Source: Antedon mediterranea
Lineage: Eukaryota; Echinodermata; Crinoidea; Comatulida; Antedonidae
DNA length: 64,000 bases
Reading direction: 5' to 3'
Assembly: GCF_964355755.1 (NCBI RefSeq)
Contig: NC_092671.1
Span: forward strand, 20,052,001 to 20,116,000
This document shows positions 260-35,753 of this stretch, in pieces. The notes under the pieces were generated by a model that worked only from the letters and a program-made list of their open reading frames with translations, ran no database searches and was not told the origin of the DNA. How positions within the stretch are numbered: position 1 is the stretch's first letter; every line of letters begins with the position of its first letter. The position numbers and the translations under genes were made by a program.

Positions 260-3200
260 TTGATATTTAGTGCCTGAATCTGTGTATAGTTTATAGGGAT
301 ACATTTGTCTTTCAGCTTCTCCCATCGGTAGTTCATCAACCATATTTTTAATCTTACTATCAGGCACAAAACTATTATTTACGAACACCACAAACGCTAC
401 ACTTGTAATGACGTTTCTAGAACGAAACACAGTACAGATAAATACAGATGAATTGTATATTTATTTTACTATATAATTATAACTATGTATTCCTACATCC
501 CATCCATGTCGTCCACAAACTTAATAACACATTATAAGTTGTTTAAAGCAACAACAAATGTTGTAAATCCTACTCTTATGTTATCACGGTATTTTAACAA
601 ATAAACTTTAAAACATGCTATATATTACAACATTCAAAATGCTTACGATTGGTCATTTAAACTTGTTGAGATAACTATGCATTCCACCTTTGTAGCGCCA
701 TCTATATTGTTATTTTCACTAAGTAACGTCGCGAATTTTTCCTCCAGTTCGTTTGTGTTAATGGCAGATCCTTCTATGTCTATTTTATATCCATTTTTCT
801 GCGAATCTTAAATAAAGAACAGAAAATACGTATGTTTATAAAGTACGCTACCCTTTATGCCATATACGATGGTCATACAATATGGTCAAATCAAAAACTA
901 TTATAAATATTACTTATAAGGTATATGCATTCACATTGTACGAACTATTATAAATATTAAATATTCTAGTGATAGCGTTTATTGCGTCGCATTGTTGTAA
1001 CCTGTGGCACTTTGTAATTACTCTTGTCGCACAAACAACATAATTGGTTAAAATGAGAAAAATGTTTACCAATTTGGCAGTTTCCCCCTGTGAATATACC
1101 AGTGCATTCGCATTGGTATTGATTCACCAAATCAGCACACTTTCCTCCATTTAAACACGGATGACTAATACATTCATTCACGTTTATTTCACAAAATGTT
1201 CCATTGAACCCATTGACGCAAATACAGTAGTAACCGTTTAAAATATCGATACAGATACCATGATAGCAGGGGTTACTATCACATTCATTGATCTCGACAT
1301 CACATGTTAATCTATGGTAGCCGGACGCACATTCACACGTAAAGTAGTTTATATGGTCATGACAAGTTGCATTGTTCACACAAGGATTACTAAAACATTC
1401 ATCGATATCTATTTCACAGACGTCACCTGAATATCCCGAAGGGCACAAACACAAAAATCCATTTACACGATCATGACAAACACCGTCATTTTGACATGGG
1501 TTACTTAAACACTCGTTAATATTGTGTTCACATCTTGTGCCATTGTAGCCTGGTTGGCACAGGCAATTGAACGCTCCGTGACCATTTACGCACGTGGCAT
1601 TATTCTGACATGGATTACTAAGGCACTCATTGAGGTCAATTTCACAGTCTGTACCGTTAAATCCCTGTGAACAGTCACAATAATAATACGCTATCTGATC
1701 GTTGCACGTTCCTCCATGAATACATGGTGAACTAGAACATTCGTCTATTTCTACTTCACATAAGTCACCACGAAAACCAGTTCCTCCACAATAGCATTCG
1801 AAATGGTTGATCAAGTTCCGACACTGCCCATGGATACATGGTGAAGAGGTACATTCATCAATGTCATATTCACAATCACGTCCATAATAACCTGTGGTAC
1901 AGTTACAAATATATGAACCAATAAGGTCAGTACACTGGCTTCCGTGCTGACAGGGGTTACTATCACATTCATCTATCTCGATCTCACACAGTGTTCCTTG
2001 AAAACCAAGTGAACAAAAACATTCGAAATAGTTTATTCTGTCATGACAAATACCATTGTTATGACATGGACTACTTTCACACTCGTCGATATTAGTACCA
2101 CAATGGGGATCGGTGAATCCTGGAGAACAGTCACATTTGAAATGATTGATTCCATCTATACATGTTGCATTATTGACGCATGGATGACTGGTGCACTCAT
2201 TAACGTCGTTTTCACAGAAGATTCCGTCAAAACCACCGCTACAATCGCAGTTAAAGTAGTTCACAAAATCAAAGCACGATCCGTTATTTCTACAGGGCGA
2301 GCTTTCGCATTCATTTACATCAATTTCACAATGATTACCTTTATAACCACTTGGACATAAACAAACGTATTCATTTATGTGGTCCGTACAAGTACCCTTA
2401 TTAACACAAGGGCTAGATAAACACTCATTGATGTCTACCGCACAATATTTCCCTTTAAAGCCATCTGCACAAATACAAGAATAATCACCTATGCCATCTA
2501 CACACGTTGACTCGCTCGTACAGTTATTACTAATACATTCATCAATGTCAATATCACAGACTTCACCTGTATACCCTTTTGTACATGCACAGTTGTACAT
2601 TCCTATGAGGTCGATACAAGTAGAATCATGTTTACATGGATTACTATTGCATTCATTTATTTCGTTTTCACAAAATTGTCCATTAAACCCGTCTTTACAG
2701 GTACAATACACATGGTTAATTTTATCTGTACATGTTGAGTTGTTTGCACATGGATTACTTAGGCACTCGTCAATATTTTGGTCACACAGTTCTCCGTTAT
2801 AACCAGGCATACAGTTGCAACTGAAATCATTGATTCCATCCTCACAAAGACCTCGTTTGCAAGGAGAACTAGCACATTCATCAGTATTTGTTTCACAGTG
2901 AATCCCCTCATAACCTCGAAGACATGTGCAGTAATATCCAGCAATTTTGTCCAGACACGTTGCGTTGTTGTGACATGGAATGCTCGCACATTCGTCAATA
3001 TTGTCACCACATTTATCGCCATCAAAACCCTCAGTACATGTACAGGTATAACCGTTTAGTTTGTCGTTACAAGCTCCTCCATTCAAACATGGTTTTACTT
3101 CTTTGGTGCATTCATTTATTTCAGTTTGACAGAATTGACCTGATAAAATAAATTGCATTACATTATGCTACAATAATTATTCACAAAGAAAACTGTAGGT

Positions 3201-6200
3201 ATTATAACTTTCAACCTTAAAATTGATAATAATTTGTTTATAGTATTAATATCAACACAATGTCATACCTTCATAACCGGGTGCACATGTGCAATAGAAA
3301 TGACCAATTTGATCAGTACAAGAACCATTGTTTTGACACGGTGAACTTTCACATTCGTCAATATCGGTTTCACAATTTGTACCTATATTCAGTAATAAAC
3401 AAAAATGAATATATGTTTACTACATAAGCTGATTTATTTTTTATTTTAAAAAAATATGTTGGTGCTTTCATCTGTCCCATGCTTTAAATAAATAAATTTA
3501 AAAACGCTTTACCTTCATATCCCTTTAAACATTTGCATATGTAGCTGTTTTCCTTGTCTTCACATGTTGCTTCATTTTTGCATGGGTCACTGCCGCATTC
3601 GTTGCTTTCTTTTTCACAATTCTTACCTAAAGCAAAAATAGTTTATTAAAGTACGTTATTAAAAGCCAAGAATCAAATATTTGGTGGTACTGTAGATGTA
3701 AAAAAATGGATTTCTCTCAAATTTTTACCATGGATAGGCACTTCAATAAAAAGCATATCAACAACATTCATTTTAATTTTTAGCCTTCATTGCCATGTCA
3801 ACGATCAATTTTCCAAATGTTGATAGGTTTCCTATAGTGAAAAAGCATAACTTGTATACTTATTTTAAACCAAAGAAAACTTACATTATACAGTTTTTGT
3901 TTATAGCAGTGTAGACAAAAGTATTGAGAGTTCATTTAATGCAGAAAAAAAATTACAAAATGTAGTTTGGTTGATACCACTATTTTAAAAAGGGGTGCTT
4001 ATTTTTTTTAAAGTATATACCTCAAGGACAGGTGTTCACTTTACTAGTAATGTTTTATCGAAATTGACAATAGTTCATAACAATTCTCAACAAATCTCAT
4101 TTTTTACCTTAGCAACGATTTCTATGTGTAACTAAGAAAACTAATTTTATAAATAACAACATTATGGCGATTTTATGAATACAAACAATTGATTGCATTT
4201 GCACTTCTACTTTTTCTCAAGTTTACTTCTACTGCATTCTAATAATCACAGATAAGTGAAGACAAATATGACCATGTAAAAGGGTCATTTTATGTAAAAT
4301 GAGGTAGTAACTGTTTCTAAGCGTAACTAAGGAAAATATTTTTAGACTAAGGGGTTTTCATAAATACAAATAATTTATAACATGGTTTTACATTTCTACT
4401 TTTTCCCAAATTTACTTTACTGAATCCTAATAATCACAGTTATCTTAAACCTGTTTCTGTACATGGGTAACTAAGGATAATTTTTATAATAAAATATGAG
4501 ACTTTCAGGAAAAAAAATAATTGAATAAATTTTACATTTGAGGTAAAATTGAGGTTAACCTTTTTCCTATAGTGAACCGTAGCAACTGTTTCTATGCGTA
4601 TTAAGTACAAGTAAATTTTTGTTAAATATTTAATTACGGGGTTTCATGACTACAAAACATAGTTTACACTTCTAACTTTTCTCAATCTCAATATGTGAAT
4701 AGGTAATTTGGAGTCAAATTATGTCAACATTTATTATTTATGTTATTTTAGAACCTGTTTCTATGCGTAACTAAAGATAATTTTTCTTTTAATAAATAAT
4801 ATAGGGAGAAATAATATAATTATTATTATTACTTGTATAGCGCACATTTATACAACATTTAATTATAATCAGCGGCGCTTCACATCAATTATTATCGTAA
4901 CATTGTTTGAAATATAGTGCTTTTAAATGTTTTTTAAACTGATTATAGTCCTCTAATATTTGTATAAAATAGTATGAAAAATCTACATAATATCTAAATT
5001 TTACTTGTAATGACAATCAAATAATCAAAATCTGGGGTTTTCATAAATACAATTATTAATCAATTATAACACTACTGAATTGAACAATCACAGTGAAAAC
5101 AATTGGTAATTTGAGGTCAAGTAAAGTTGAAATACAACTTTTCTAGAAACAAAGTCAGCGTAGAAGTGTTAATTGTTTTTTTTTAGATTTAAAGGGGTAA
5201 TATTATTACAGTATAAACTATAAACCAATATTTATTATAAAATGCGATATTTTACGTGCTGACCTTAAATTAAATTAAACTTTTTAATTTAAAGAGTAAA
5301 AATGCATTTCACGTCAGGGCTTCAATTTTTGTTATGTAGCATTATAACATACCTGAGTATATCATTGACATTTGATTGGCTAAATTTAAGGGAGGGGGAA
5401 GTGGTGGAGACAGGATTTTAAAATAGTTAGGAGGTGGGTGGATGAGAGGGTCTAAAAAATAAAGACCCGAACTTAACTTTATGTACTATCTTTTGCATTG
5501 CAATTTTGAAACTTGTGTTTTATGAGGGGGTATTGAGAGGGTGTTGGTGGAGCTTGAATTCGTCTATTTGTTGGGAGGACGATGGTAGCGGCAGTGTGGT
5601 AGTTTTGTGAAGAAAGAAGGGTGGTGCTTGGTTGCATGAATTTGACACTCTAAAGTGCGGGACGATCGACACAAGTAGAGTAGTAGTAGTTAGTTTGTTA
5701 TCTTTTTGTAGTTGTGTGTGATCTGCTTAGGTAAGCAAATAGAAGAAGTAAAAAATGAAAGAGGAGCTTCAAAATAAGAGAGGAGTAATCTATTGCAAAT
5801 ATTAAAATTCACAACGATCTGGTATAATTTAATACAATTTTCAGAGGATATAACGTTGAAAATGACACTAAAACTGGGAATTACAGAATCTATAATTACA
5901 AATATTGTATAAAACATTAATAATTGTTCTGACCAATGGGTTTGTAATCAGATAATCAAAGAAAATATATAATAATTTTGCTAATATACCGTACCATGTT
6001 TTGGTTTTTTTTTTACCTCAGTATTGAAACTACCTATTTGTACAGTAATAAATTAGCTTAAAATACACTCTGGGCGTCATGATTAAGTTAAAAATACCCC
6101 CTTTTAAAATATGAATTCAAAAATATAAAAAAGTATGAAATAGGTATAATGCATTGTTATTAAGCATACACTAATTATTTGTTATAATTAAATGAACACA

Positions 6201-7652
6201 AAGTCACTCGACTCAGTCAGTTGAAAAGTATCTTGTTTGACGTTACATAGTAATGAAATTCAATATAAGTTAATTGTGTTCTTACCATAGTAACCCAAAC
6301 TGCATCTACATTCATACCATCCTATATGGTCTATACACATTCCATTCGTATAGCACTCAGTATTCGCATTCTTGCATTCGATTATTTCAGTACTACAGTT
6401 AGGTCCTTCATAACCAGTAACACATTCTTCTTCACCTGTCTCAATGTTGCAGACAAAATTTTCTGGAGGAACACAACGCTTTGAACATGTTGGTCCGTAA
6501 AAATCATCGTCACAGTATACTGCCACATCAATGGTTGTACTACTTTTAGGTTTCCTGTGAATATGAATAATGATCAAAAGTAAACACAAAATATATAAAG
6601 TATTATTTATTTTGATTAATGATTATTCGCACATTTTTGTTGATATAAGATATAAAATATAATTAATTCTGAGTAAATCGTCGTACTTACTGAAGTGGAC
6701 CTTCCCTTATTACGTAACGGGAAGTTTGTAAATCTGACTTATTTGGTTGCAAATTAAGATCATCTAGATGATAAAAAACATTTGCTACCAAGTCATCGGG
6801 ATTCCTTCTGTCCTCATCCCATATTGTAAGGTTAAGCCAAATGCTTCCCTGGTTAGGAATGAAAGAAAATAGTTTAATTTAGTTTATTAGTTTAATATCT
6901 ATATATAAATTTACGTAAGGGCAAAATTCGGTAAATCGCGCGTTACCTTTAGAATGTTTACTAGATGGTATATAAAGTTGGTTTGTACTTTCGGTACACA
7001 TTTTAAGCACCTGATGGGTAATCTGTTATTAACAATTAAAACGAATTTAGGTTCAACGATTTGCCATATCTTGATTGACGACATATCAATAAATAACAAA
7101 CTAATTGTTAAAATGTTTTAGTTTTGTTGTAGCTAGCTTTAATAAATAAAAACTGGAATGGTTTTGATCAACGCGTTTTTAAACCCAAAAACTTACATGC
7201 CATTGCTGTAATTTGAATACCAATGGATTTTCAAATATTATTTCTCCAGATTCATTTTTTAACTGATTGGGAAAACTGAATTTATTCTTATTAAAATAAA
7301 TGACAGGAGTGCTTATACAAGGAGGGTCTGTCTGTTCCTGCTTCCATCTGAAAAAAATAATAAAATAGTCGTTGTAAGCTTAGTGTCATAATTTTACACT
7401 GGACAGTTAATTTGATTATACTAAATCGTACCACATTTCTTATCAACAAACCTAATAAACCTATATATAAACAATAACTGTATGAATGCGAATCAATGTG
7501 GGACACACTCAACAAAGAGAACAAGAATATCAATGTTGTTTTATTTAACTTAATTTTTACTTTATTCAATTCCCAACCAACAGAGATAAAACAAAACAAG
7601 AACACAATAAACATTAAATAATAAAATAAATAAATAAATAATGAAATGATAA

Positions 7653-7685
<33 letters not shown>

Positions 7686-10600
7686 GGTTGTTGTTTAAAC
7701 AAATTAAATATAGTATTGGAAAAAAACGATTATAGTTAAGATTATATATGTATTTAATTTGTTACCAAAATTACTAATGTATTACAATTGAGAAAAATGT
7801 TGCTTTTAAGTCCGGATAAGGATAATGTCATTGTCGTATGAATATTGTTTTTCAAGTATAATATATTTTTTTAGTCCCTAAGTTTCAACTAATTATGTAA
7901 AAATGTTTAAATATCGTTAATTGTTTGTTACTAGAGGGTGAGCTCGCTTCGCTCGCTCTCCCTCTAGGAAGTGTAGACGATGGTTCTCGGAATGATAATG
8001 TTCTCCTTGTACGTTTTCTGTCGGTTACCATTATGGAAAATGCTTGACATTCGTAAAACTAAACTACTCTGTTTCACAGTGTCTTAGATGATTAATAACA
8101 TGTTAAAGTATAGTGTTTATTGTTTGGTAGGGCCCTTATAGGGCGGAGGTGGGGAGGCGGAGTTCATTTGAGGGAGGTGCTTATTCGAGGGATATATGTT
8201 TAGTTTGTTTAGTGTTACTAATAATGGTAACATTTATAATCAAATGAAATCCTCTAGTAGATATGAAAAGTGGTAAAAAAGAATAACAAATGCTTGGTAA
8301 ATTGTAGATAAAATAATATGGTAACATTTTTAATAAAATGAAATCCTCTAATAGATATGAAAAGTGGAAAAAAGAATAACAAATGCTTGGTAAACTGTAG
8401 ATAACAGTGCGATGAATTCTACTACAAATAGTATAATTGTGGAGGGACGTTTATTAGATAGTTGGGTTGGGGGCGAGGGCGATAATTATTCAAAGTGATG
8501 TTTTATTGGAGAGGCGTTTATTCAAATAAATACCATCCTAATAATTATTAATATTATTTAATTTAAACATCTTTTGAAACTAACTGCCGTTACAGAGTGG
8601 GCCCAAGAAAGGAGACATTACGGCTTAGAACATGGGCAGACATCTCGGTCCTAACGGGACACAGATAGCCTACAGTTATTCCTGCCAGCTTACTCAATAA
8701 AACTCAGCTATCGGGATTTCACTCGATTTTAAACAAAATGTCTTATCATCAAATCTCCCTATGTAATTTTATAATACTATTCCCCACAATATATTTGGAT
8801 TCTTTATGGCGCATATTTAATTTGATCTTTATTAATTTACAGTATAATTTTTTATTTTTTTAACTACTGTACCTTCACACGCGCGGTCCGTTCCTAAAAT
8901 AAAAAAAAAAACCTTAAATGGCTATGACTAATGGCCAGTCCTACTATCTGTTTTTTTCTTCCGTCTTCCAAAGGGACACTGTATTGATTGATGGAAAGTG
9001 CCTGTTTCCAGTCACCTTTAGGGTCAAATCTATTATTTTGAACTGCTCCCTTGTGTATAAAAGAGAGAAAATAGTTGAAACCAGGTTGTTGCAAGGTGAA
9101 CTCATCGTAAACTCGGAAATTACTTTGACCGCGAAGAATTGAAATTGAGTTAAAAATCTACTGTTGAAATCATAAATTTTGTTAAAAAACTCTTTATAAT
9201 ATCTTCCTAAGATAGAAATCTGGAACAATATCGTCGAACTGAAAACTAATGTTAACAAATCTACTTTTCGCGGTACATCTGAGATAGATAAGATAGGTAT
9301 CCAAGGCGGAGATTTCTACCGAAGTTTTTCCATTGTGCTCGCCTATGTCAGAATTAACCATAATTTATATATAGATTGTTTGGAAATATATATTTAATTT
9401 AGATGATAATAAGCTTAGAATGGTTAAATTAGCTATGGATAACACATTTTTTGTAAATTATTTTTTATTTTACTGTTTTAACAGCATTGACATTTTCGTA
9501 TCATACATACCTATTTCCATTATGAAGACAAATTGAAAATTTGTTATCACAAGCAGATTTATCTTCGCATCGAGGACCGTGTTTAAGTCGCCCTGTGCTA
9601 TCATACAAAATCAATCCAACCTGAATACTTGCTGTCGCATTTACTTTCTGGAATTATGAAATATATCACTTGGAATATTGGTATTACGATTTTATTTTAA
9701 AGTAACATTCATATAAATGGATATAATTACAAAGAGTGCAATGATGTAGTGCATAGATAACATTTAATATAGCCTGAACTTGAATAATATTTAAGATAGA
9801 CAGACTTAAAGTGAGTATGACAGGTGTTCTTTTAACAAGATCATAATAGTAAACCTCAAAATTAACATAGCATAATTTGTGTCCTTGATAACAATACGTA
9901 TATTTCCTTGAAGCAGTATTTCTATAGCATTGTACTACCACATCCGTAGATCCTTCCTAGTAGATTATAGCCAACAGAAAGTGTTACTGTTAATGTTTTC
10001 ACTTTTCTGGTTTTAAATATTACGTTTTGATTACTATTTAAAGAGAAATTCGATGTCAGAATGATCTTTTTTCTCCCCGAGAGTTGGGATGGGTTTTCTG
10101 CCCTTTTGTCAATTTGTGTGTATTTTCAAAAACCTACCAATATTTGTTTGATTCTTCAAATTTTCAATGATTGTTCTATGCCAAAAAATAAACTCATTTT
10201 AATGTGGTCTTTTGTATTTATTTGTACATATATCAATATATATATAACACCTAAATAAATTCCTGTCAATTGATTGGACGAATGTGGGTCACACGGTGTG
10301 CAATAGTATACAAATAATGAATGTTTATGAGTGTAATGGTACAAATAATGGAATGAGGTGAATGAAAAAATGTTATATATCAAAAAGGCGACAGCCGAGT
10401 TGATATTTAACCTTCCATCATTTACCAAATGTGAAAAACATAAACATTCATTATTTGTTTTATATAACATCTAAATAGATTCCTGTCATTTGAATCAAAT
10501 TAAAGGTAGGCCTAGCCAATTCCTATATTTGATTCACATAATAATTACATTAGATATTATTATTTATTATTGATTTAATAAATGCACAACTGTTAGTGTT

Positions 10601-11628
10601 AATTATGTCAACAAACGACCAACAAGCCTAGGCCTAATTTTTACAGGCCTAGGACTACTACTAGGCCTCGCTAGGCCTAGGCTGAAAGACAGCACTATCA
10701 AACTTCGACAGGGAACTGAAACTTATCTAGGCTAATTATAAGCTTCCCACAAGGAGCAGGGGAGGTTAGGACCTGTACATGAAATTAATTTACTAGTAAA
10801 AAGTGGGTATAAAAAAACTGTTTAGATTAAACAAATGATTACTTTAGTCCTACATTTTTAAATTCGTATTTACTTGGCACCACGGATAATTTACTTGTTT
10901 CTTAATTTGGTAGGATGTTTGTATAAAGATAAAAATATAGATAATTTCTTGTTTATTTTTCCCATTTTAAAAAGAAGATTTAAAAGAATAAAATTGGTCT
11001 ACGGAAAATCAATTATTCTAGTTTGTAAATGACTTGCAATATAATAATAACAATGATATTTGTATCATTATTTCAGTGTATATTTATTCATGTAAATCCA
11101 CTTTAAAATAGGTGCGCCTTATTTAAATCCAAAATCTATCACTTTCAATGCTAATGTGATTGCTAACTAGAAATGAATGGAGCTGTTTCAAGTAAAAAAT
11201 AAAGATAATATAATTATAATAATGGTGGTGATCTCAAATAAACTCGCATGATTGAAGATCCACTAGTGGTATATTATTAACATACACCGTGGTTATTCTA
11301 AATGAAGTTTTAGTTCAAACTAACCAAACATATATTAAAATGTTATATCTCAATAATGTCTTTGTTGGCCTAGAAACCTGTTATTGGTTATTTATAATAC
11401 TATACGGGTAAATCATAATTGTGCATACTTTAATTCCATTTCTGATCTGGTTGATTATAAACATGACAATAGAATGTAGGCCTAATCATTGTTTAGCAGT
11501 AAAATACATTCTGTACCACCTTCAACGATATCAGATAATAATTTAACAATTTATATACAATTACTTACCAGGATAACTTTGAATGAAAGACAGACACATA
11601 ATAATAACAGTGAGACAAAATTCTTCAT
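260..11628 (-). CDS. Notch-ligand-like DSL/EGF membrane protein, gene A (3' end beyond window)
   Basis: Spliced model read by eye on the minus strand. Coding exons: 11569-11628, 9511-9647, 7197-7347, 6691-6848, 6286-6554, 3513-3626, 3269-3382, 1070-3139, 647-806 and 260-416. All have GT-AG borders and compatible phases, giving 1130 residues so far. The start ATG has A at -3 and begins a hydrophobic signal peptide ([20 protein letters not shown]). Residues about 21-168 are MNNL-like with paired Cys. A six-Cys DSL domain lies at about 181-222, followed by 21 EGF repeats to about 1024, mostly of the calcium-binding I/V-D/N-E-C type. Residues 1025-1130 form a juxtamembrane domain shared with gene B. 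The last intron donor is at 259-258, so the transmembrane and cytoplasmic exons lie beyond position 1. DSL plus MNNL defines the Delta/Serrate/Jagged family, which acts on Notch at the cell surface; a ligand role here is inference. Canonical Delta or Jagged proteins have fewer EGFs. A divergent ligand or decoy is possible. Confidence 0.88.
1070..3139 (-). other. Single 2070-bp exon encoding 18 EGF repeats (gene A)
   Basis: One uninterrupted exon, phase 1 at both ends, encodes 18 consecutive six-Cys EGF modules of about 38 residues. The start is set by an acceptor at 3142-3140 and the end by a GTAAAC donor at 1069. Most modules begin I/V/L-D/N-E-C, the calcium-binding form, and carry the C-x-S-x-P-C O-glucose consensus. 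Roughly half also carry Ser/Thr before the third Cys, the O-fucose consensus. Modules are diverged from each other, so this array is old compared with that of gene B. The three preceding EGFs are split among the DSL exon and two separate 114-bp phase-1 exons. Confidence 0.9.
3627..6285 (-). repeat. Gene A intron with diverged tandem repeats and a SINE-like tail
   Basis: No exon is visible here. At about 4090-5110 a unit of roughly 150-190 bp recurs about six times in diverged form. Each carries 'ctgtttctatgcgtaactaa', then 'gggttttcataaatacaaa', then 'cttctactttttctcaa' or variants. At about 4815-4890 an ATT-rich tract with 'agcgcacatttatacaacatt' looks like the reverse-oriented tail of a tRNA-derived SINE. 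Confidence 0.6.
6898..7080 (+). mobile_element. Helitron 5'-end fragment in gene A intron
   Basis: Begins A|TCTATATATAAATTTACGTA followed by AGGGCAAAATTCGGTAAATC. The same terminus occurs, inverted, in the complete element at 31026-32223, and part of the adjacent sequence recurs at 55285-55435. Homology fades around 7080 and no 3' hairpin follows, so it is truncated. Confidence 0.6.
7931..9375 (-). mobile_element. Non-autonomous Helitron-like element in gene A intron
   Basis: On the minus strand it starts A|TCTATATATAAATTATGG at 9375 and ends with a long hairpin followed by CTAG|T at 7931. The hairpin arms are CTAGAGGG and CCCTCTAG around GAGCGAGC/GCGAGCTC. 5'-TC, a 3' hairpin plus CTAG and A|T insertion are Helitron hallmarks. 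It contains a 94-bp tandem duplication (about 8221-8314 and 8317-8406) and no transposase ORF. Confidence 0.6.
9648..11568 (-). other. First intron of gene A, no gene seen
   Basis: AT-rich intron between the signal-peptide exon and the first MNNL exon. It holds a 35-bp direct repeat (about 10245 and 10465), a cluster of AGGCCT palindromes near 10625-10685 and no recognisable coding sequence. Confidence 0.6.
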
Positions 11629-11737
11629 GGTTTTAACAGGTATTAATTAAAGGGTGTGAAGTTTACCGGATCGTATTTTCAACTACCTTAAACCATAGTT
11701 TTATTGACCTCTTATTGAGTTCATTTGTGAAAAACCA

Positions 11738-13700: not shown

Positions 13701-13734
13701 AGATATAAGAGATTAAACAGCGGTTGCCAACGGA

Positions 13735-13800
13735 AATGTTTGGTCTAGTGGTAAAGGTTCTAACCTATTACACTGGAGCCCTTGCTTCGAGAACATTTTT
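13735..13800 (+). repeat. tRNA-like SINE head fragment
   Basis: 'tggtctagtggtaaagg' resembles an A-box region, and a degenerate B-box-like 'gcttcgagaac' lies 45 bp on. A poly-T tract follows. It does not fold as an intact tRNA, so a tRNA-derived repeat is likelier than a gene. Confidence 0.4.
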
Positions 13801-14205: not shown

Positions 14206-14350
14206 GAACCCCCAAATGCGAAAACAACCACAAATGTGAAAACGTATCACCCACAAATGGGAAAACAACCACAAATGTAAAAACGCATCACTCACAAATT
14301 AATGTGAAAACAGCGCCCACAAATGTGAAAACGATCATCGCCCACAAATG
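14206..14350 (+). repeat. Short minisatellite 'cccacaaatgtgaaaac'
   Basis: A unit of about 17-25 bp, variants of 'cacaaatgtgaaaacg', repeats about seven times just after the broken RNase H domain. Confidence 0.8.
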
Positions 14351-14478
14351 TAAAAAAAATTCAAATCAAATTTATTGCTAGGTCCAAACAATTTTGATTG
14401 AGTTAATGTTAATGTATTTATACATTGTATTGAGTTGTTTCAATAAGTGTGTGTTCACGATACGTCTGAGTCGTCGTC

Positions 14479-15005: not shown

Positions 15006-15055
15006 GCCTCAAATTCACCTGGACGTACGAGCACAAGAAAGTGTGGTATGTGCTA

Positions 15056-20900: not shown

Positions 20901-23900
20901 AATTTCAAACTGACAATTTGTTCCATAATACCCAGGGACGCAAACACAATTGTACCCATTAACTGTATCATTACATTGTGCCTGATTATCACACGGATTT
21001 GATTCACATTCGTCAATTTCAAACTGACAATTTCTTCCATAATACCCAGGGACGCAAACACAATTGTACCCATTAACTGTATCATTACATAGTGCTTGAT
21101 TATCACACGGATTTGAGTCACATTCGTAAATTTCAAACTGACAATTTGTTCCATAATACCCAGGGACGCAAACACAATTGTACCCATTAACTGTATCATT
21201 ACATAGTGCTTGATTATCACACGGATTTGATTCGCATTCGTCAATTTCAGACTGACAATTTTTCCCATTAAATCCATCAATGCAATTACATGTATAATCT
21301 CCAATGCCGTCAATACACGGGGCGTTATTAAAGCAAGGTCTACTAGCACATTCGTTTATGTTATTACCACAGTCTTTTCCTGAATATCCGGTTGTACATT
21401 CGCAGTTAAAATTGTTTACCAAATCATTGCATGTGGCCCCGTGAAGGCACGGTGAATTTTCGCATTCGTTTATATCGTTTTCGCACAAAAGTCCGTCGAA
21501 ACCCTTTGAACAATTACACGTGAAATGGTCACGTCCGTTGACACAGACACTGTTGGAATTACAAGGATTACTTTCACATTCGTCAACATCATGCTCACAC
21601 ATGGGCCCATAGTAACCACCAATGCAATCACAGCGAAATTCAGCGATCAAATTGATACACTGGCCTGAATGTATACACGGGTTGCTGTTACATTCATTGA
21701 TTTCTAATTCACAGAACTCGCCCGTGTATCCAGATGTACAATTACAATGGAATCCGTTTAAGATATCCTGACAACTTCCTCCATATTGGCATGGTAAACT
21801 TGAACACTCGCTTATTTCCTTTTCACAGTGTAATCCTATAAAATTATATTTTAACATCAGCAGAAACACAGCAAATGACAGTCAATTAAGATTTATTTAA
21901 ACACAATATATTCGATTTTAGCAGCAAAATGGGGTTAGTCAAATCATGGAGTAATTAATACTCTATGGTCAAATACGGGGTTAGTAAAATATTTTTATAA
22001 TTATTAATATTGACATCTTAAATATCTGTACCAGATAGACCTATAAGCAAGTTACTCAATACCTTTTGTTCCGTTTTCACATTTGCATTTGAAGCCATCC
22101 GTTTGACTGATACACTCAGCATCGTGTTTACACGGGTTTGGGGAGCAATGATCAACACTTTCTAGACAATCCAATCCGGCGAATCCCGCAGAGCAAATCT
22201 TCTTTCCAGACAACTTGTCACATCTGTAATTATCAGTCTCTGGTGGTTCACATGATATATTACAACGTGAGGTGTAATAGTTATCATCACAGTAAACGTT
22301 AGCATCAAATTCAATTCTAAAATAATAACAACTTTAATTCTTAATAGTATTAATTTTATGTCGGAATTCCATGTGGAATTTCTCTTGTGGGAGTCACTCT
22401 GCGCCATCACACTCGCACGCCCTCGTGTGTTGTTGTTGCAGTGCGCCACCTTGCGCCCTATCGAGTGAAATTGTTGTCGCCATGTGCGCCACCAGAGCCA
22501 TATATATGGCTCTGTGCGCCACCACACTCGCACGCCCTCGTGTGTTGTTGTTGTGCGCCACCTTGCGCCCTATCGAGTGACATTGTTGTCGCCATGTGTG
22601 TGTTGGTTCTAGCAAAGATAGTGTAGTAGGCCTATAGTGTCGATTGATATTATTTTGGTTTGTTTATTAAAAGTGTTCATATCTCCGTGAAGTTGATTAG
22701 TCTTTATTGCCGCTGAACCTATAATAGTTGTAACTATATATTGAAGATGTTGAATTACGATGTTACTATTAAGTTTAGTTTTAGATTTATCTATTTGCGA
22801 TTACAAACAAATTTAGGTTAATCGATTCGCTCCGATGCTGAAACATAGAATAGGCCTACCCGCACAAAACACGAGAATGCTTTGTATTCACAATAATTGT
22901 TTTTAATTGCCGAAAACCGGTTAATACAGCAAAAACGACAAAAATACTATTTTTAAATCAAGTGTAGCTTCTCAATAAATTTCAAGACAAGTTTGCAATT
23001 CAGTTTTTTTATTGCGGTTCCTCATCGAACGCGTTCACACCAAGCCCGGATCCGGTCCGGTGGCCGGAGAAAAATTCGTGGAATAGGTTAAAGAATAGAA
23101 GCGTTCACATCAAATCCGTTTGAATTTTGTACGAATTTTCTCCGGTAGACGGATTCGGATTGATGGATTTGGAAGCCATTTAATTTGTAAAATCGTACGG
23201 ATTTTCTTCTCTACCTAGGCCTACATAATTGCGTCTAATGTTTCTATGCAACCTAAAAACAGACGACATAGGCCTACCTACACCCGTTAGGCGCGCTACG
23301 CAATTTGTCCCCTTTTTGCGCCACATTCAGCCTACTAAATAATTATTAACGACAGGCCTAGGTTATTACTGAAATACACCGGGCGTGAAGTGAAGTTGGT
23401 TACTTTTACCTTATTCGATATTCAAATTTTCCTTAATTTAAGGCCTAGGCTATCCTAATTAACTTTATTTAACAGCCTACTGTTATGTTACAATTATAAT
23501 ATTATTTAGGCCTATTATTATTATTATGGCTACTAGGCCTAGGCTATACTAGGCGTTAGGCCAGTGCTATGCTAGCCTAGGCCTAGTTGGAATTGTTTAC
23601 ATGTTTTACTGTACTGACCAGTTATGTTTTTTTATAGAAAAATGGACGATCAAACGATAGAACGTCTTATTACTTATGGAACAAAATTCATTACTATATG
23701 ATTTAAGTGACAAGGGGTACAAAAAATCAAGAAGAAAACTAGATGTGTGGAATGAAATTGCATCTAAAGTAAGATTGGAGTCTGGTAAGTATCACAGCCT
23801 ACTTTACTTGTTGTCATGCTTTTTCGCTGTTGCACCCTGTCTACAATTCCTGAAAGGATTAGGTTATCTTCATACATTAATTCTTCTATTTAAAAAAAAG

Positions 23901-29900: not shown

Positions 29901-32900
29901 GTGTGCACTGACAGGTACAATACAGCATACGTTTATTCAAATGTATTGCTTGACAGCGATGAATGGAACATTCCAATCCCTCTTCCAAGTGGCCAATCCC
30001 GCAACTACGGCTCTTCCGGACATACAACAAAGTTTAACCATCGGTGAACAAGGGGAAAGTATACAATTGTATAATTCCCTGTAAAAATTACTCCAAATAG
30101 TATACCTATTACAAGTACAGTTTCTATAAATACCCAGTCTTCCGCAACCCTTAGAAAGACCATAACAATTTAACGAAAAATCAACCATTATTTTTTTAAT
30201 GTGGTAGGCCCCTTATGAAAAGTACCGTTGCCTTAGATAGGCTATTTTGTTTGCAAAAATAACACCATTTTAAAATGAATAATATTATTTTCTCATAACT
30301 ATTTTAAGGAGTAACAAATATAGATAATTACTTGATTTTGTTGCTTCTCTTGCCAACAAGGACGCTTCTCGATAATTTTTCTCTTGGGTCCAGTTCAAAT
30401 TCTTTACGTAGTACATCTACCCTATGTTTCTCATTATTTTGAACTTCCGATACCACAATCTTTAATCTAAATACACCCTGGATATGATAAGTGTACTACT
30501 ATTAGCAAAATTTCTCTCGAGCCTTTACAAAAGAGAGAAAAATCAGCTTTTAAAAAAATGGAAGCATTTTCTATCTTTCAATTTGATACTATAAATACAT
30601 TAAATTAGGCTAGCATAGTCAATTATTTGGCTGAATGGCTAGATAGTGCTTTACTTTCCAATTAGTAAACTTTAGTTCGAACACTATCGTGGAGTTAGTA
30701 AAGAGTTATTTCTAGGTAAAATACTATTTATGTGTGAGGAATGGGCATTATATATCAGCAGATGCGATACTGTTTATTGTCGCTAGACATTATATACCGT
30801 CTAAGAACTGGACAATAAATAGACCTACCTGCCAATATGTAACGTTGAAGAGGAAAGGATTTGAAATTGATTTCACTTCATTTGTATTTTCTGTAACTTG
30901 TAGAACATCTGGAAATCTCAAATTGTTCCCTTTTGTTTTCATTGGCAATGTTTCAAACCTATACATATCCATCCGGGGCCTAAAACGATGAAACAACAAA
31001 TAATAGATTATTATTATTATTATTACTAGATGGTACGCGAGCGTACCATCTAGCTGGTCGTGTCCACAGATGGTTCTCTAATACACAGTAATTTCAGCGT
31101 AAAAAATGTACGTACCGCAGGACTATAGTACATTGTCGTTTACAAATAAATAGACACGATGATTTATGTAAAATTAGCACCGTGGGAATTAGGCCTTGTC
31201 TTAAAAATGAGTCCGATTTTTTTATCTGAACTCATTTAAACAAACCTAGTTTGTGTTTTGTATATAACATTAGAGTGGAGGGATGGGGAAGAGGATGGGA
31301 AGAACAATTTTTAAATATATTCTCTATCCACTTAGTAACGAAATATTGTTTTAATATTAAATGTTTTATAGGCCTATCAATAATATACCACTAAACACAG
31401 TAAACAAGTACGATTTATAATACTTTTTTAAAACTGTCCCTGTTATAGTCGATTGTACAGTACATATAACGATACACTACTACGACGTTTATATTTGTTA
31501 TAATTATTAATTAATACAAACGTTGAGAAGCAACTGTCAGTAACAGTCACAGTAATAAATGTTCTTTGTATATCTTGTTTATATATCTAACAGTAACCAC
31601 ATTCACAGTAAGACAATTTTGATTCAAATGGCAAACAAAATGGTTAATATGTACAGTATTTACAATATTGTCAAAGTATTGCAATATTATATGTAAGTTT
31701 TATTCTCCAAGGGCCCATAAATTAAACGTATATTAAATCTATCAAAATAGGTTTTTTTTTTAAAGAAAATCGGCCTGTCTTCAACATTATGATACTGTAC
31801 TCGAGCTGTTCAACCGGTTTTCAGCTATTAAAAACAATTATCGTAGGAGGAGATAGGAAAATGCGAAGTATCCTCGTTTATTGTGTGCAGGTATTTTTTC
31901 ATGAGAACATCCATTAGACAGTGTATAAACAGGGTTACATCAGGTGGTTAAAATCAGTACCGAGATTCTAACCAACTTTATATACCATCGTGTAAACATT
32001 CTAGAAATAACGCGCGATTTACCGAATTTTGCCCTTACGTCTAAATTCGTTTTAATCGTCAATAACTAATTAGTTAACTAAATTTAATTAGTAAACAGGG
32101 TTACATCAGGTGGTTAAAATCAGTACCGAGATTCTAACCAACTTTATATACCATCGAGTAAACATTCTAGAAATAACGCGCGATTTACCGAATTTTGCCC
32201 TTACGTAAATTTATATATATAGATTCTTTATATTTGGCCCAATATAAACAAATACATCAGAAATTCCTCTTATATACACTGCAGAGATAATAAAAAATAT
32301 ACATACAAAATACAAATCTATATAAAATCAAATATAGGCCTAAAATATCAAAAAGTCTATGATCCATGAATTAGCGTTGGACAAATGTGTTATAGGTGAC
32401 AATAGACTGTGGGATAAATGACTTTTTATGGCGTTTAGTACGGCTTCAAAGCAGACGTATACGAATATTAGATGGAAGAAAAGTGTATTCCTTATGGAGT
32501 GGGTGGTCTGTTTGGGAGAGTATACTTTTAACCAAAGAGAACACACCTGCATCATAGTTGAAATTAAGTACGGATACATGAACTCCAATAACCCGCACGG
32601 CCCTTCTAGTAATTTTATTTAATAATACCTTATCTTTTTCATATAAACAAAGCCTCCCAGATAATTCTACAAAAAGATATAACACTAAGTATCGTCGACT
32701 GGTAGAACAGTATAAGAATTTGCTAGCATTAAATTTCCTAAGTTGTCTTAACAGATATAGCCGTTGTTGTCCTTTTTTATAGAGTTTTTTAATGTTAATA
32801 CACCAGTCCAGCTTTTCGTCTATTATAGTTCCTAGATATTTATGCTCTGGGACAACTTTAATTAACTCATTTCCTATATTAAGGGGCTCGTGAACCTATT

Positions 32901-35753
32901 TCCCTCCCTAAACTATATTTAAGGAAATGGTCTTTACATCAATTAGTGAAATGGTTTACAACATTATAGTAATTGTTAACAGATTTATTTATAAGATTAT
33001 ATCTGTTAACATGCAACAGACGGCAAATAATAAATGACGGTATGTTACGGTACTGATGGTTTGAATTCAATGATAAATGCAAATTATTGCATTGGAGTTT
33101 ATTACATAAAAAAATCAGTATAAGGCTATATTTTATATTGTTAAAACTTCGTTTCCATTAGAACGCCAAAGAAAAGACGTTAACTAAATGTACTGTCTTA
33201 CCGTAACTGGCGAATGGAGACTTCAAACGTAACGTCACAACCATGTCGTGCTCCTACCGTAGTTGTACAGTTCGTACCGTCTGCTTGAGGATTCAAGTAC
33301 TTCTTTAAGCGAAGTGAAAATGTTGCCGTCGAATGACAAATGTCCTGAAATATCATAATAGTGAATAATGCTGACCCTAAAGAGTCTCGTTTTATGTATA
33401 TTTAACATTAGGCCTAATCACATATTAACATTTTTTTTAGAAAAGCGAATTCTAAAATAGATTACATTAATTAGAGAGGTATACAAGGATAAATAGAACA
33501 TCTACATTCATTAGGGGAAAGAAAAACATTTTTAAAACATTGTACACTTGGAGTCATACGCACATTATTAGGTAAATTATTCCATAACTTAGATCCAATA
33601 AAAGAGAATGATCTATCACCAAATAGTCTACTAGTTTTAGGAACAGCAAGACGAGTAATATCTTGTGTGGATATGAGTCCCTGGCGACCAGGGTTATACC
33701 AGAGTTATACTAAAATGAGTTCCTGTAAATAGACGGGTGCTGAACCATTGATGCAGTTGTACCAAGATCTTAAATTCAATCCTTTGCTGGACAGGCAGCC
33801 AGAACGCAAATTTCATTTTAGCGTCAAAATGCTCAGAACATATTATATTTCTATTCATTCTAATACAAAATGTTGTCAGAAAATGTTTGTGACTTTTGAC
33901 CCTAGTATGCTCATATCTTGATAACTACTTGTAGTAGATGACATGCAATTGGTCTTAAATTGTTAACGACATAATGTTAATATTTATTCTAATGAAATAT
34001 TTTGTCCTAAAGTGACCGGAAACCACAATATTGATAGTCTCAAATTTCGGTAACCAAAGGGCATAAAATCGTAATATTGGGCTTAAATTTTGCAAGACGT
34101 ATATATTTATATTTGAACTAATGAAAAAAAATGTATTTAATTGTCTGCCTTTTTGAAGACCGCTTTTTGATATCTATATTTTCTTACTGTTGCTGAACTT
34201 CCAATGGCAATATGCACAATTTTCCAGTTGTTAAAGATGTATTGTCCCCTTTAAAAAAAATAATTGTTAACATTTTTGTTAAATACGCCATTTTAATGTA
34301 ACTAATAGTTATCTACTTTGACCAAACATTGAGGGTAAAAAATGTATCCTGAAAAAAACTGAAATTTAAAGCAAAAAATGGTCAAATTAACAGCCAGCCA
34401 ATGGGTTTTTGATTCAATTTAACTATATTTATTTTGTCATTTTATAAAAGCATTCTAAATTATGTAAAAATGATTCGTAATTGATTAAATCATTGTAATG
34501 TTAGTGTTTATTATTCTTATATAGAAACTATTATAACAAATATTGTAATTTTTTTGGATTGGTCACTGGAATGATAGCTAAATAGATTGGGTCGAATAGG
34601 CAAAATACTGCGACTCTCTATGACCAGTAGTTGACATTGTTTGGGTCAAAAGTCACTATCATTACTTCAATTCATCTCAAATATAAATATGTATATACTT
34701 ATAAATGCCTAACATCACAATTGTATGCCCATTAATTACCAAAATGTGAGACTACCAGGTCAAGGGTCAGTATGGTTTCCGGTCAATTTAGGACAACAAA
34801 ATTAATTATACCAAACATTAACACATTTTTGTCATTAGTTCAAATATAAATATACGTCTTGCATAATTTAAGCCCAATATTAGGTTTTTATGCTCGTTGG
34901 TTACCTAAATTTGAGACTATTTTTGTCATCCGTGTACGATTCTGACCCTAAGGCACCCCGCTAAAATAAAGTGCGCCTGTTGACTTGATTTTGAATAGTC
35001 TGCCATCTTTGGATATCTGAGATTGCTAAACCATCAAGCAGAGAGTCCAAACGAGACAGAATTAAAGATTTGGCTGGGTAAGCGCACGGAGAACGATCTA
35101 TAAAATAACGGATTCTACTTAAATTACGGATATGAAAATTAATACTTCTAAACAGTGAGCTTACTTGATTTTGGTCTATACCGGTATGCTAGCTATACAA
35201 AAATAAAGTAATCAAATTTATTTTATCTTGAAAAAATTAAACAATAAGAAACTACTGTACTGACTTCAAATACTAATGCTGAAAGATTATATTTTGCAGC
35301 AAATTTTTTATTATCACTGTTCTGTTGTAATTATAACTTTGATGAACGGTTCAATCAACAGTCATGTAGGCCTACTTTAAATCTAATAACAACATTATTC
35401 ATAATCATAAGCACTGTAAACTTAAAGATGTATTGTCCCTTTGACTACTGTAATTTCAAAAATATTTTATTTCGAGAAAAGGTGTCATTTTCAAGTATCA
35501 TAATAGTTAATATAATAACTTTTCAATATTACTTTGATATGGCCAATTTAAATTTAGAATATTTACATAAGTTTATGATTATTGTTATCGTCGTGATGAC
35601 TCCTCCTGCTCCTCCTCCTCCTCCAATTGAGTATAAAACAAATTTCGATAAAATGTTCACTAACACTAATATTATGTTAATAATATTTTCACTACTTACA
35701 AAATTGATTAATACAATAAAAGGTAATATCCAAAAATGGCCGTATGTCTTCAT
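17992..35753 (-). CDS. Notch-ligand-like DSL/EGF membrane protein, gene B (complete)
   Basis: Spliced model by eye. Coding exons: 35700-35753, 33202-33344, 30829-30979, 30332-30477, 22063-22316, 19556-21835, 19120-19297, 18864-19026, 18675-18763 and 17992-18097. They total 3564 nt (1187 residues plus TAA), with GT-AG borders and unbroken phase. The signal exon ([21 protein letters not shown] with A at -3) is the least certain, being 2.4 kb from the next. MNNL-like residues run about 19-164, DSL about 172-215 (six Cys), then 21 EGFs to about 1009, a juxtamembrane domain about 1010-1123, a transmembrane helix about 1131-1152 and a 34-residue tail after Arg1153, ending ITSV. The tandem position and shared exon order with gene A indicate local duplication. 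It probably acts as a cell-surface Notch-family ligand (family knowledge); its receptor is unproven. The introns hold about 8 kb and 2 kb of transposon debris without breaking the frame. Confidence 0.9.
18675..18763 (-). other. Transmembrane exon of gene B
   Basis: An 89-bp exon, phase 0 to 2, encodes a hydrophobic helix from V-Y-L-T-I-G through V-I-T-L-G-Y-F, followed by Arg. It is the only membrane-spanning segment besides the signal peptide, giving type I topology. Confidence 0.85.
19556..21835 (-). other. Single 2280-bp exon encoding 20 EGF repeats (gene B)
   Basis: One phase-1 exon between an acceptor ending at 21836 and a GTACTA donor at 19555. It encodes 20 EGF modules. Modules 1-5 and 17-20 are diverged; modules 6-16 are near-identical copies. 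Module 17 begins I-S-K-C, and modules 19-20 have a shortened linker (CNYC), so the C-terminal part has drifted from the calcium-binding pattern. Confidence 0.9.
19992..21245 (-). repeat. Eleven near-identical 114-bp tandem EGF repeats within gene B
   Basis: Exactly 1254 bp, i.e. 11 x 114 bp, with no indels and in frame. The module core is ESNPC, then D/N/Y-NQA-L/Q-C, then NDTVNG-Y/F-NC. Copies differ at few positions: I-D/N-E at the start, L or Q before Cys3, and T/Q/R in the G-x-NCQ linker. Every copy keeps the O-glucose consensus C-E/D-S-N-P-C, the Asx-hydroxylation consensus between Cys3 and Cys4, and an N-D-T glycosylation sequon. None has Ser/Thr before Cys3, so none matches the O-fucose site. 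High identity implies recent expansion or gene conversion, and copy number may vary between alleles or be mis-assembled. Confidence 0.95.
22405..22600. repeat. GC-rich tandem repeat with central dyad
   Basis: Two copies (about 22412-22493 and 22526-22598) of a unit with 'ccctcgtgtgttgttgttg', 'gcgccaccttgcgccctat' and 'gttgtcgccatgtg'. Between them is the perfect dyad CAGAGCCATATATATGGCTCTG. Confidence 0.85.
23642..23784 (+). pseudogene. MADF-like DNA-binding domain exon, frameshifted
   Basis: ATG at 23642 opens [12 protein letters not shown] one-base shift then leads to [24 protein letters not shown] and a consensus donor GTAAGT at 23785. L-Y-D, spaced Tyr and W-x-x-I-A are MADF hallmarks, found in transcription regulators and in PIF/Harbinger accessory proteins. 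No continuation was found, so it is probably a transposon or gene relic. Confidence 0.5.
24498..24835 (-). pseudogene. BEL/Pao gag fragment, downstream piece
   Basis: The minus-strand frame reads [15 protein letters not shown] then L-V-D-F-A-I-V-L. This matches the central gag (DUF1759 type) pattern of Pao retrotransposons. It continues the piece at 28753-29122 once the two inserted elements between them are removed. Confidence 0.6.
24818..26158. mobile_element. TIR element between Pao gag and Gypsy
   Basis: Left end GTGACATCATGGATTAAAGA is inverted at the right end as TCTTTAATCCATGGTGACATC. The interior is 1.3 kb, with a short ATG-initiated frame at about 25053 ([10 protein letters not shown]) but no transposase. 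Confidence 0.5.
26160..28752 (-). mobile_element. Gypsy LTR retrotransposon, internally deleted and decayed
   Basis: Two LTRs of about 215 bp (26160-26372 and 28536-28752) share 'ttttcaccggaatgaagaaa' and 'taggtcactaca'. Between them on the minus strand lie a gag start ([15 protein letters not shown], about 28460-28530) and RT with Y-A-Y-G-D-D (about 28290). RNase H follows (V-D-A-S-D-V-G-V-G, about 27930), then integrase zinc and core regions (27480-26660) and a pol C-terminus at about 26455-26600. Most of gag and protease is missing, and many stops and shifts are present. Confidence 0.85.
28753..29340 (-). pseudogene. BEL/Pao gag N-terminal fragment
   Basis: The minus frame reads [15 protein letters not shown], then S-K-D-E-C-M-H-Y-L and, after a stop, [17 protein letters not shown]. 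This is the DUF1759-type gag core. A coiled Gln/Glu-rich N-terminal piece starts near 29336. It ends abruptly where the Gypsy LTR begins at 28752. Confidence 0.65.
29428..29490 (-). repeat. Possible BEL/Pao LTR remnant, paired with 22966-23028
   Basis: About 63 bp, 'tgtagctgctcagtaaactt' onwards, recurs at 22966-23028 in the same orientation. It contains AATAAA on the minus strand and sits just upstream of the gag fragment. The two positions could be the LTRs of the broken Pao element, but the homology is short. Confidence 0.35.
31026..32223 (-). mobile_element. Non-autonomous Helitron in gene B intron
   Basis: The minus-strand 5' end is A|TCTATATATATAAATTTACG (32223). The 3' end is a perfect hairpin with arms AGATGGTACGC and GCGTACCATCT followed by CTAG|T (31026). 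The 5' region contains two 112-bp direct copies (31929-32040 and 32095-32206) differing at one visible position. A second member with the same hairpin starts at 50000. Confidence 0.75.
32330..32900 (-). pseudogene. LINE reverse-transcriptase C-terminal fragment
   Basis: The minus-strand frame reads [30 protein letters not shown], then [12 protein letters not shown] and S-F-I-P-Q-S-I across frames. This is the post-YADD thumb and C-terminal order of CR1/L2/Jockey-like elements. Confidence 0.7.
33465..33700 (-). pseudogene. LINE C-terminal tail fragment
   Basis: The minus frame reads [19 protein letters not shown], the G-x-R-S-F-x(5)-L-W-N-x-L-P signature at the end of CR1/L2-like ORF2. It lies in the first intron of gene B, right of exon 33202-33344. 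Confidence 0.65.
33870..34945. mobile_element. Inverted-repeat element of the 'ggtcaaaggtca' family
   Basis: The left arm (about 33870-34170) and right arm (about 34590-34945) are inverted diverged copies, e.g. 'gcaagacgtatatatttata' versus 'taaatatacgtcttgcataa'. The same family forms the arms at 55441-56406 and 61266-62601 and a copy at 43560-43860. A MITE of the AAGATGTATTGTC type is inserted in the loop near 34235. Confidence 0.6.

What the first reader, a model, noticed from the sequence alone, without database searches (positions are those of the whole stretch)
260..35753. Tandem pair of divergent Notch-ligand-like genes with matching exon plans
Two complete or nearly complete MNNL-DSL-EGF genes lie head to tail on one strand. 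They share exon order, and the exons that can be compared share intron phase, down to a 151-bp MNNL exon in both. This is a local duplication of a DSL family with about 21 EGFs each, beyond canonical Delta or Jagged. It may be a lineage-specific ligand cluster.
Basis: partly seen in the sequence, partly recalled or inferred. Interest (0 to 1): 0.72.

Follow-up and report, generated by a model that had tools for sequence, protein, structure and literature searches.

The report
Four-gene array of decayed Notch-ligand relatives
The window holds two intact-looking genes of a four-gene row coding for long cell-surface proteins built like Notch ligands, but the part that known ligands use to grip Notch is altered and shortened in them, so they may well do something other than switch Notch on.

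Summary
Two minus-strand genes (A, 11628 to below position 1; B, 35753-18675) code for signal peptide, C2/MNNL-like domain, DSL, 21 EGFs each, a two-exon juxtamembrane domain and a transmembrane helix. Predicted introns are GT-AG with matching phases, and both genes have a 151-bp second MNNL exon. Both DSL domains pass Pfam's cut-off; MNNL passes only against a profile of relatives, not Pfam's model.

The interpretation needs changing. At least two more copies (D, C) begin about 38 and 75 kb below the window's start. The exon plan is not special to the pair: nine divergent DSL genes in this genome share it. These nine split from canonical Delta and Jagged ligands with support 100/100. Whether A-D form one clade is unresolved.

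At four Notch-contact positions of DSL, A and B keep none, and A's loop is four residues shorter and B's two. This genome's own Jagged, however, keeps only one. D has lost most of its DSL. B carries eleven 114-bp EGF units that are 96% identical. One Notch gene was found.

Best reading: non-activating DSL-type surface proteins, for adhesion/recognition or DLL3-like Notch modulation. Function is inferred, not shown.

The parts
11569..11628 (-). Gene A exon 1: start codon and signal peptide, 60 bp
   Evidence: ATG plus hydrophobic stretch, donor score 7.1, phase 0 like B
9511..9647 (-). Gene A MNNL exon 1, 137 bp, phase 0 to 2
   Evidence: splice sites; profile match, with A in the profile and with A left out
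7197..7347 (-). Gene A MNNL exon 2, 151 bp, phase 2 to 0
   Evidence: match to genes D and C, splice sites
6691..6848 (-). Gene A MNNL/C2 exon 3 with [11 protein letters not shown], 158 bp, phase 0 to 2
6286..6554 (-). Gene A DSL domain and EGF1, 269 bp; DSL loop four residues shorter than in JAG1
   Evidence: Pfam DSL over cut-off; fold match to Serrate/DLL4/Jagged DSL
3513..3626 (-). Gene A EGF2 exon, 114 bp, phase 1-1
3269..3382 (-). Gene A EGF3 exon, 114 bp, phase 1-1
1070..3139 (-). Gene A giant exon, 2070 bp, 18 EGFs
   Evidence: Pfam EGF, open frame 733 aa; donor chosen by phase
647..806 (-). Gene A juxtamembrane exon 1
   Evidence: conserved in A, B, C, D and L017
260..416 (-). Gene A juxtamembrane exon 2; gene runs on below window position 1 (TM at -890..-987)
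35700..35753 (-). Gene B exon 1: start codon and signal peptide, 54 bp
33202..33344 (-). Gene B MNNL exon 1, 143 bp, phase 0 to 2
   Evidence: profile E 0.004 without B in the profile, splice sites
30829..30979 (-). Gene B MNNL exon 2, 151 bp, phase 2 to 0
30332..30477 (-). Gene B MNNL/C2 exon 3, 146 bp; acidic DxDxxxDD motif absent
   Evidence: weak profile match (E 8.5) in the right place and phase
22063..22316 (-). Gene B DSL domain and EGF1, 254 bp; DSL loop two residues shorter than in JAG1
   Evidence: Pfam DSL over cut-off
19556..21835 (-). Gene B giant exon, 2280 bp, 20 EGFs
   Evidence: donor chosen by phase
19989..21265 (.). In-frame tandem array inside the giant exon: 11.2 copies of a 114-bp unit = one EGF each, 96% matches
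   Evidence: Tandem Repeats Finder; 11 units, mean identity 0.957
19120..19297 (-). Gene B juxtamembrane exon 1
18864..19026 (-). Gene B juxtamembrane exon 2
18675..18763 (-). Gene B transmembrane exon; cytoplasmic tail exon not settled

Best explanation
A and B are intact-looking members of an array of at least four tandem genes within a divergent third branch of the DSL family (nine genes found in this genome, beside one Delta and one Jagged). Each makes a type I membrane protein: a C2/MNNL-like tip, a DSL module that probably still folds, a stalk of 21 EGFs, a small juxtamembrane domain and a membrane helix. SHOWN (by prediction from sequence): architecture, array, branch, altered and shortened Notch-contact loop, recent EGF expansion in B. 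INFERRED: because none of four Notch-contact positions is kept and the loop is shortened, while frames, splice sites and membrane anchor are kept, they no longer trans-activate Notch in the standard way. They most likely act as cell-surface recognition/adhesion proteins, or else as non-activating modulators of the single Notch, as reported for mammalian DLL3. The EGF stalk in B has been lengthened or homogenised by slippage or unequal exchange of a 114-bp unit.
For: Pfam DSL over cut-off in both. Held-out MNNL profile hits A and B at 63.1 and 53.5 bits against 9.5 for the best of 3000 shuffles. Matching phases; open frames of 1195 aa (A, to its possible last exon) and about 1152 aa to the TM end (B). 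Nine-gene branch split from six canonical ligands at 100/100. DSL alignment: Jagged1 F199/R201/R203/F207 read R/V/P/gap in A and S/E/P/T in B; the stretch between the third and fourth DSL cysteines is 7 residues in A and 9 in B against 11 in JAG1, DLL1, DLL4 and fly Delta (counted by eye). Role of these residues: PMC3415683 (passages) and Arg203Lys in PMC5538765 (passages). The DSL fold of A superposes on Serrate and DLL4 DSL at 1.0-1.2 A over 43 residues, Z 5.2. One NOD hit over cut-off, so one Notch found. B repeats: pS 0.049, pN 0.042 over 11 units. Precedent: DLL3 does not bind Notch in trans and inhibits in cis (PMC4391858, abstract start in the listing).
Against: No expression, binding or transcript data. 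The four positions are a poor yes/no mark: by the same alignment human DLL1 and fly Delta keep 4 of 4, but rat DLL4, a true ligand, keeps 2, this genome's Delta 2 and its Jagged only 1 (with a loop one residue shorter); of the other divergent genes C, L010, L015, L016 and L017 keep 1 and L014 none. Notch could be bound through the C2 site or by compensating changes. A non-binding DSL would not by itself show adhesion. The exon pieces were picked because they matched, which flatters the held-out scores, and against a profile of canonical ligands alone B (2.8 bits) and D (3.7) fall below the best shuffle (9.3).
Confidence: 0.5

Rival explanations
1. A and B are true, if divergent, trans-activating Notch ligands: a lineage-specific ligand cluster that binds Notch through altered contacts.
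For: Whole ligand architecture kept, DSL over Pfam cut-off, DSL fold predicted for A, transmembrane helix present, one lysine in A's possible tail. This genome's canonical Jagged itself keeps only 1 of the 4 DSL contact positions, so their loss need not mean loss of function.
Against: 0 of 4 DSL contact positions kept in A and B and the loop 4 and 2 residues shorter than in JAG1; neighbour D keeps only 2 DSL cysteines; no DOS-type short EGFs after DSL by eye; A's possible tail is about 32 aa.
Confidence: 0.25
2. A and B are DLL3-like modulators (a narrower form of the best explanation, so the odds overlap): kept in the same cell as Notch, they inhibit it in cis or act as decoys.
For: Precedent DLL3 (PMC4391858, abstract start); one Notch found against eleven DSL-family genes.
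Against: No residue or motif seen here predicts Notch binding in cis; PMC3415683 (passage) reports that Serrate DSL mutants lose cis-inhibition as well as trans-activation.
Confidence: 0.25
3. The array is decaying by drift; A and B are on the way to becoming pseudogenes.
For: D has lost most of DSL, B lacks the acidic C2 motif, and A, B and D have long branches.
Against: No stop or frameshift in 1195 aa (A) and about 1152 aa (B), consistent GT-AG sites; six-cysteine EGF pattern in 17 of A's 18 and 20 of B's 20 giant-exon EGFs, the remaining one intact by eye.
Confidence: 0.1

Closest known systems
Delta and Serrate/Jagged Notch ligands (fly Delta 7alk, human DLL1 4xbm, rat DLL4 4xl1, human JAG1 4cbz)
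   Same: Order signal peptide, MNNL/C2, DSL, EGFs, TM; DSL cysteines and predicted fold
   Different: None of four Notch-contact positions kept and loop shortened; 21 EGFs, most in one exon; no VWC/CRD; no short DOS-type EGF1-2 by eye; MNNL exon layout differs from this genome's Delta; outside the canonical branch at 100/100
Mammalian DLL3
   Same: Divergent DSL protein that does not activate Notch in trans (PMC4391858, abstract start)
   Different: No sequence comparison with DLL3 was made here; A and B have 21 EGFs and belong to a branch beside Delta and Jagged
DSL-family expansions in other invertebrates: 7 Delta in Lottia, 5 in a sponge (PMC2770060, passages); [quoted passage not shown]
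   Same: Lineage-wise multiplication of DSL-EGF genes beside canonical ligands
   Different: Those genes could not be aligned here; an array with graded DSL loss was not seen in the passages read

Membership tests
Canonical Notch ligand (Delta/Serrate/Jagged) | DSL domain recognised by Pfam PF01414 | tested here: met
   A 27.8-32.1 bits, B 35.2-39.3 bits, cut-off 24.2
Canonical Notch ligand (Delta/Serrate/Jagged) | MNNL recognised by Pfam PF07657 | tested here: not met
   No match in A or B even spliced; gene C matches at 49 bits
Canonical Notch ligand (Delta/Serrate/Jagged) | Conserved Notch-binding face of DSL (Jagged1 F199, R201, R203, F207) | tested here: not met
   0 of 4 kept in A and in B. 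Yardsticks on the same alignment: JAG1, DLL1, fly Delta 4; DLL4 2; this genome's Delta 2, Jagged 1 (positions from PMC3415683). So not a sharp test
Canonical Notch ligand (Delta/Serrate/Jagged) | Type I membrane protein with signal peptide and TM | tested here: met
   Read from the sequence, no predictor run: signal exon and TM exon of B in the window; A's signal exon in the window, its TM exon just outside
Canonical Notch ligand (Delta/Serrate/Jagged) | Short-loop (DOS-type) EGF1 and EGF2 | tested here: not met
   By eye: EGF1 and EGF2 of both genes are ordinary full-length EGFs
Canonical Notch ligand (Delta/Serrate/Jagged) | Falls inside the canonical branch of a tree | tested here: not met
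   Six canonical against nine divergent rows split at 100/100; A, B and D are long branches
Canonical Notch ligand (Delta/Serrate/Jagged) | Binds and activates Notch | not testable with these tools
   Needs an assay
Jagged/Serrate | VWC/cysteine-rich domain after the EGFs | tested here: not met
   Last EGF is followed directly by the juxtamembrane exons in the models of A and B, and no VWC place is listed in the window or array among 108 matches; this genome's Jagged has one
Divergent DSL branch of this genome (nine genes) | MNNL profile of the branch, with A, B and D left out | tested here: met
   A 63.1, B 53.5, D 46.5 bits; best of 3000 shuffles 9.5
Divergent DSL branch of this genome (nine genes) | MNNL exon phases 0-2, 2-0, 0-2 and DSL exon entered in phase 2 | tested here: met
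   A, B, C, D, L010, L014 fit; L015 fits with its second-ranked MNNL3 donor, L016 with its second-ranked DSL acceptor, L017's MNNL exon 2 was read by eye only
DSL fold | Predicted structure superposes on solved DSL domains | tested here: met
   A residues 14-57 on Serrate 7alt_A: Z 5.2, 1.0 A, 43 residues; the 8 best of 14 rows are all Notch ligands, next SCARF1 at 3.4. Caveats: Z under 8; mean pLDDT 73; the alignment given held Delta and Jagged rows; Foldseek alone had no match at E <= 0.001

The most novel reading that the evidence does not exclude
A Notch-ligand family has been turned into a receptor-independent surface recognition system. In one tandem array the Notch-gripping DSL module is being dismantled step by step (loop one residue shorter in C, two in B, four in A, nearly the whole domain lost in D), while the C2 tip, EGF stalk and a juxtamembrane domain unknown to Pfam are kept, and the stalk is being lengthened by a coding 114-bp minisatellite, possibly variable between individuals.
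Probability: 0.22. Interest if true: 0.7.

Novelty: new variant of a known kind. Interest (0 to 1): 0.45.

Why it matters
One Notch receptor was found here beside eleven DSL-family genes, nine of them outside the Delta and Jagged branches. The array gives a natural series from near-complete to nearly lost DSL domains in otherwise intact-looking surface proteins. That would let one test what the C2 tip and EGF stalk do without standard Notch binding, and so an older idea that Notch family members began as adhesion molecules (mentioned in PMC10970066, passage).

Tried and rejected
A recent A-B duplication: not accepted, because A and B are 25% identical over MNNL-DSL, neither is clearly the other's nearest relative (B pairs with the distant L017 at 93/89 in the nine-row tree) and the exon plan is family-wide.

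Kinship of the juxtamembrane domain with Jagged's own membrane-near region: the order of strands and helices looked alike to me by eye, but hhalign against the single Jagged sequence gives probability 0.4%, and Pfam gives A, C and D nothing better than E 0.2. Left open.

Mitochondrial code as a test of phylum: no COX1 in the assembly.

Tail exons: a comparison of frames downstream of the TM exons gave no convincing shared tail.

Literature: eight searches. In the rows shown (for example 25 of 202 papers and 15 of 406) I saw none on an array with eroded DSL domains or a coding EGF minisatellite in a DSL gene. The library holds only open-licence papers, so this does not show that none is in print. 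PMC10970066 (passages) gave no count of echinoderm DSL genes in what I saw; PMC2770060 (passages) names a sea urchin Delta numbered 3 without details; PMC5675594 (passages) was read on lysines in ligand tails only.

Full report
WHAT WAS CHECKED. The window is C2:20052001-20116000 of a 354-Mb, 18-contig animal genome. On the minus strand I rebuilt both genes exon by exon. Gene A: 11628-11569, 9647-9511, 7347-7197, 6848-6691, 6554-6286, 3626-3513, 3382-3269, 3139-1070, 806-647, 416-260, then -890..-987 and a possible last exon from -1155 outside the window. Gene B: 35753-35700, 33344-33202, 30979-30829, 30477-30332, 22316-22063, 21835-19556, 19297-19120, 19026-18864, 18763-18675. Between these exons every intron is GT-AG and every phase fits; A reads open for 1195 residues, and one search shows the stop that follows. 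Weak sites chosen by phase: A 1070 (0.2) and 647 (0.6), B 19556 (-0.4 against 1.6 for 19534). B's cytoplasmic exon is not settled: the exon I tried began one base too early and gave a stop; another start gives a different tail.

DOMAINS. Pfam DSL is over its cut-off in both. Pfam MNNL finds neither gene, while gene C of the array matches it at 49 bits. A profile made from six relatives (C, L010, L014-L017) without A, B and D finds A at 63.1, B at 53.5 and D at 46.5 bits, against 9.5 bits for the best of 3000 shuffled sequences; without C too, 53.2, 47.6 and 41.5. A profile of six canonical ligands alone gives A 14.3, D 3.7 and B 2.8 bits against 9.3 for the best shuffle. So the N-terminal domain is related through intermediates, not directly recognisable in B and D. 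Both genes have 21 EGFs: A 1+2+18, B 1+20 (one of A's counted by eye). A two-exon juxtamembrane domain follows the EGFs in A, B, C and D; L017 shows its first exon and L010 its second. Pfam gives it no family in A, C and D.

AN ARRAY OF AT LEAST FOUR. The DSL scan lists ten places, one of them 78 kb below the window (gene C). A branch-specific MNNL profile found a further copy, D, at C2:20,013,886-20,014,020. D's next exons hold only two of the six DSL cysteines, then six EGFs and the juxtamembrane exons. Single-exon searches of the whole genome: A's MNNL exon 1 hits A and D; C's juxtamembrane exon hits C, A and D; D's MNNL exon 2 hits D, A and C, plus two frames with stops on C7 and C9 that I did not follow; C's MNNL exon 1 hits C and four dispersed genes. 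None of these four searches found B, so a further copy as divergent as B could be missed. The array runs B, A, D, C on one strand. About 2 kb between C and D was not read.

THE REST OF THE FAMILY. Delta is L011 (C10:10.53 Mb), with its own TM and tail. Jagged is L012/L013 with its VWC domain and tail in L019. Five more divergent DSL genes are dispersed: L010, L014, L015, L016, L017. The nine divergent genes share the MNNL phase plan, with these reservations: L015 fits by its second-ranked MNNL3 donor, L016 by its second-ranked DSL acceptor, and L017's second MNNL exon was only read by eye; C's DSL exon end is unsettled. The second MNNL exon is 151 bp in A, B, C and L010, 142 in D, and 139 in L014, L015 and L016. 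Delta's layout differs. A tree of 15 N-termini splits six canonical ligands from the nine at 100/100; the Jagged row lacks one MNNL exon and the JAG1 row 18 residues. Within the nine nothing is firmly resolved: A-B-C-D as one clade is not rejected (p-AU 0.223 with 15 rows, 0.148 with nine rows), but appears in only 4% of 200 bootstrap trees of the nine-row set. A, B and D have long branches, so this is weak either way. Local duplication is the simplest reading of position and strand, but it would be old, and the tree does not show it.

DO THEY BIND NOTCH? Human Jagged1 F199, R201, R203 and F207 form the Notch-binding face, important in cis and trans (PMC3415683, passages). Arg203Lys impairs Notch recognition (PMC5538765, passages). 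On the alignment these read R, V, P, gap in A; S, E, P, T in B; F, D, S, Q in C; D lacks the region. Between the third and fourth DSL cysteines JAG1, DLL1, DLL4 and fly Delta have 11 residues, A 7, B 9, C 10. Against my reading: on the same alignment DLL1 and fly Delta keep 4 of 4, but DLL4 keeps 2, this genome's Delta 2 (E, T, R, F) and its Jagged only 1 (Y, R, H, S; loop of 10). So these positions do not separate ligands from non-ligands sharply; the stronger point is A's much shortened loop and D's loss of the domain. The predicted structure of A's DSL-EGF1 exon (mean pLDDT 73) superposes on solved DSL domains of Serrate, DLL4, Jagged2 and Jagged1 at 1.0-1.6 A over 43 residues (Z 4.7-5.2), the eight best rows all being Notch ligands, though Z is under 8, the alignment held canonical rows and Foldseek alone had none at E <= 0.001. 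B also lacks the acidic C2 motif DxDxxxDD of its relatives. The genome has one NOD-domain hit over cut-off and one weak hit below it, hence one Notch found.

THE EGF MINISATELLITE. In B, 19989-21265 is 11.2 copies of a 114-bp unit at 96% matches. The 11 units are exactly 38 codons apart, one EGF each, with mean identity 0.957 (0.904-0.991), pS 0.049 and pN 0.042. Near-equal values point to recent spread with little filtering so far. None of the eleven units carries the O-fucose pattern found in 10 of A's 17 scored EGFs (consensus recalled).

WHAT ANIMAL. A Hox cluster of 12 places lies at C2:7.83-8.21 Mb. One homeobox (L027) has the motif FLFNMYLTRDRR and one (L023) KWKKDNNLPNTK, which I recall as deuterostome Hox9/10-like and Hox4-like.

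VERDICT. Real, intact-looking, unusual in detail; a variant of a known kind, since DSL expansions are known in molluscs, a sponge and others (PMC2770060 and PMC8166818, passages). The most likely working is non-activating cell-surface recognition or Notch modulation; that step is inference.

Noticed in passing
window 50633-53599 (-): Open frame of 988 aa with reverse transcriptase and endonuclease domains: a LINE-type retrotransposon with a long open frame.
   Followed up: no
window about 26456-28132 (-): RNase H domain of an LTR-type retroelement (Pfam) and integrase-like frames by eye inside the large intron of gene B between MNNL exon 3 and the DSL exon.
   Followed up: no
L006:8514-8711 (-): Gene D: an MNNL-EGF protein whose DSL is reduced to about 11 residues with two cysteines; a possible tail exon listed ends in TSPV, which looks like a PDZ-binding end (recalled motif).
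   Followed up: partly
L014 and L015 (C7:0.32 and 0.55 Mb): Two dispersed relatives with only three EGFs after DSL in the exon read; possible tail exons are rich in tyrosine or acidic residues, and L014's holds NPVY.
   Followed up: no
G000:C7:25179644-25179763 and C9:20328638-20328754: Weak matches to MNNL exon 2 with stop codons; possibly pseudogene pieces or chance.
   Followed up: no
window 14208-14978: Tandem arrays outside the listed exons (units of about 41 and 117 bp) between genes A and B.
   Followed up: no
L012 (DSL exon about 6699-6848): This genome's canonical Jagged has an unusual DSL loop (CRPHNVSRHFTC), one residue short and with R203 and F207 changed.
   Followed up: no
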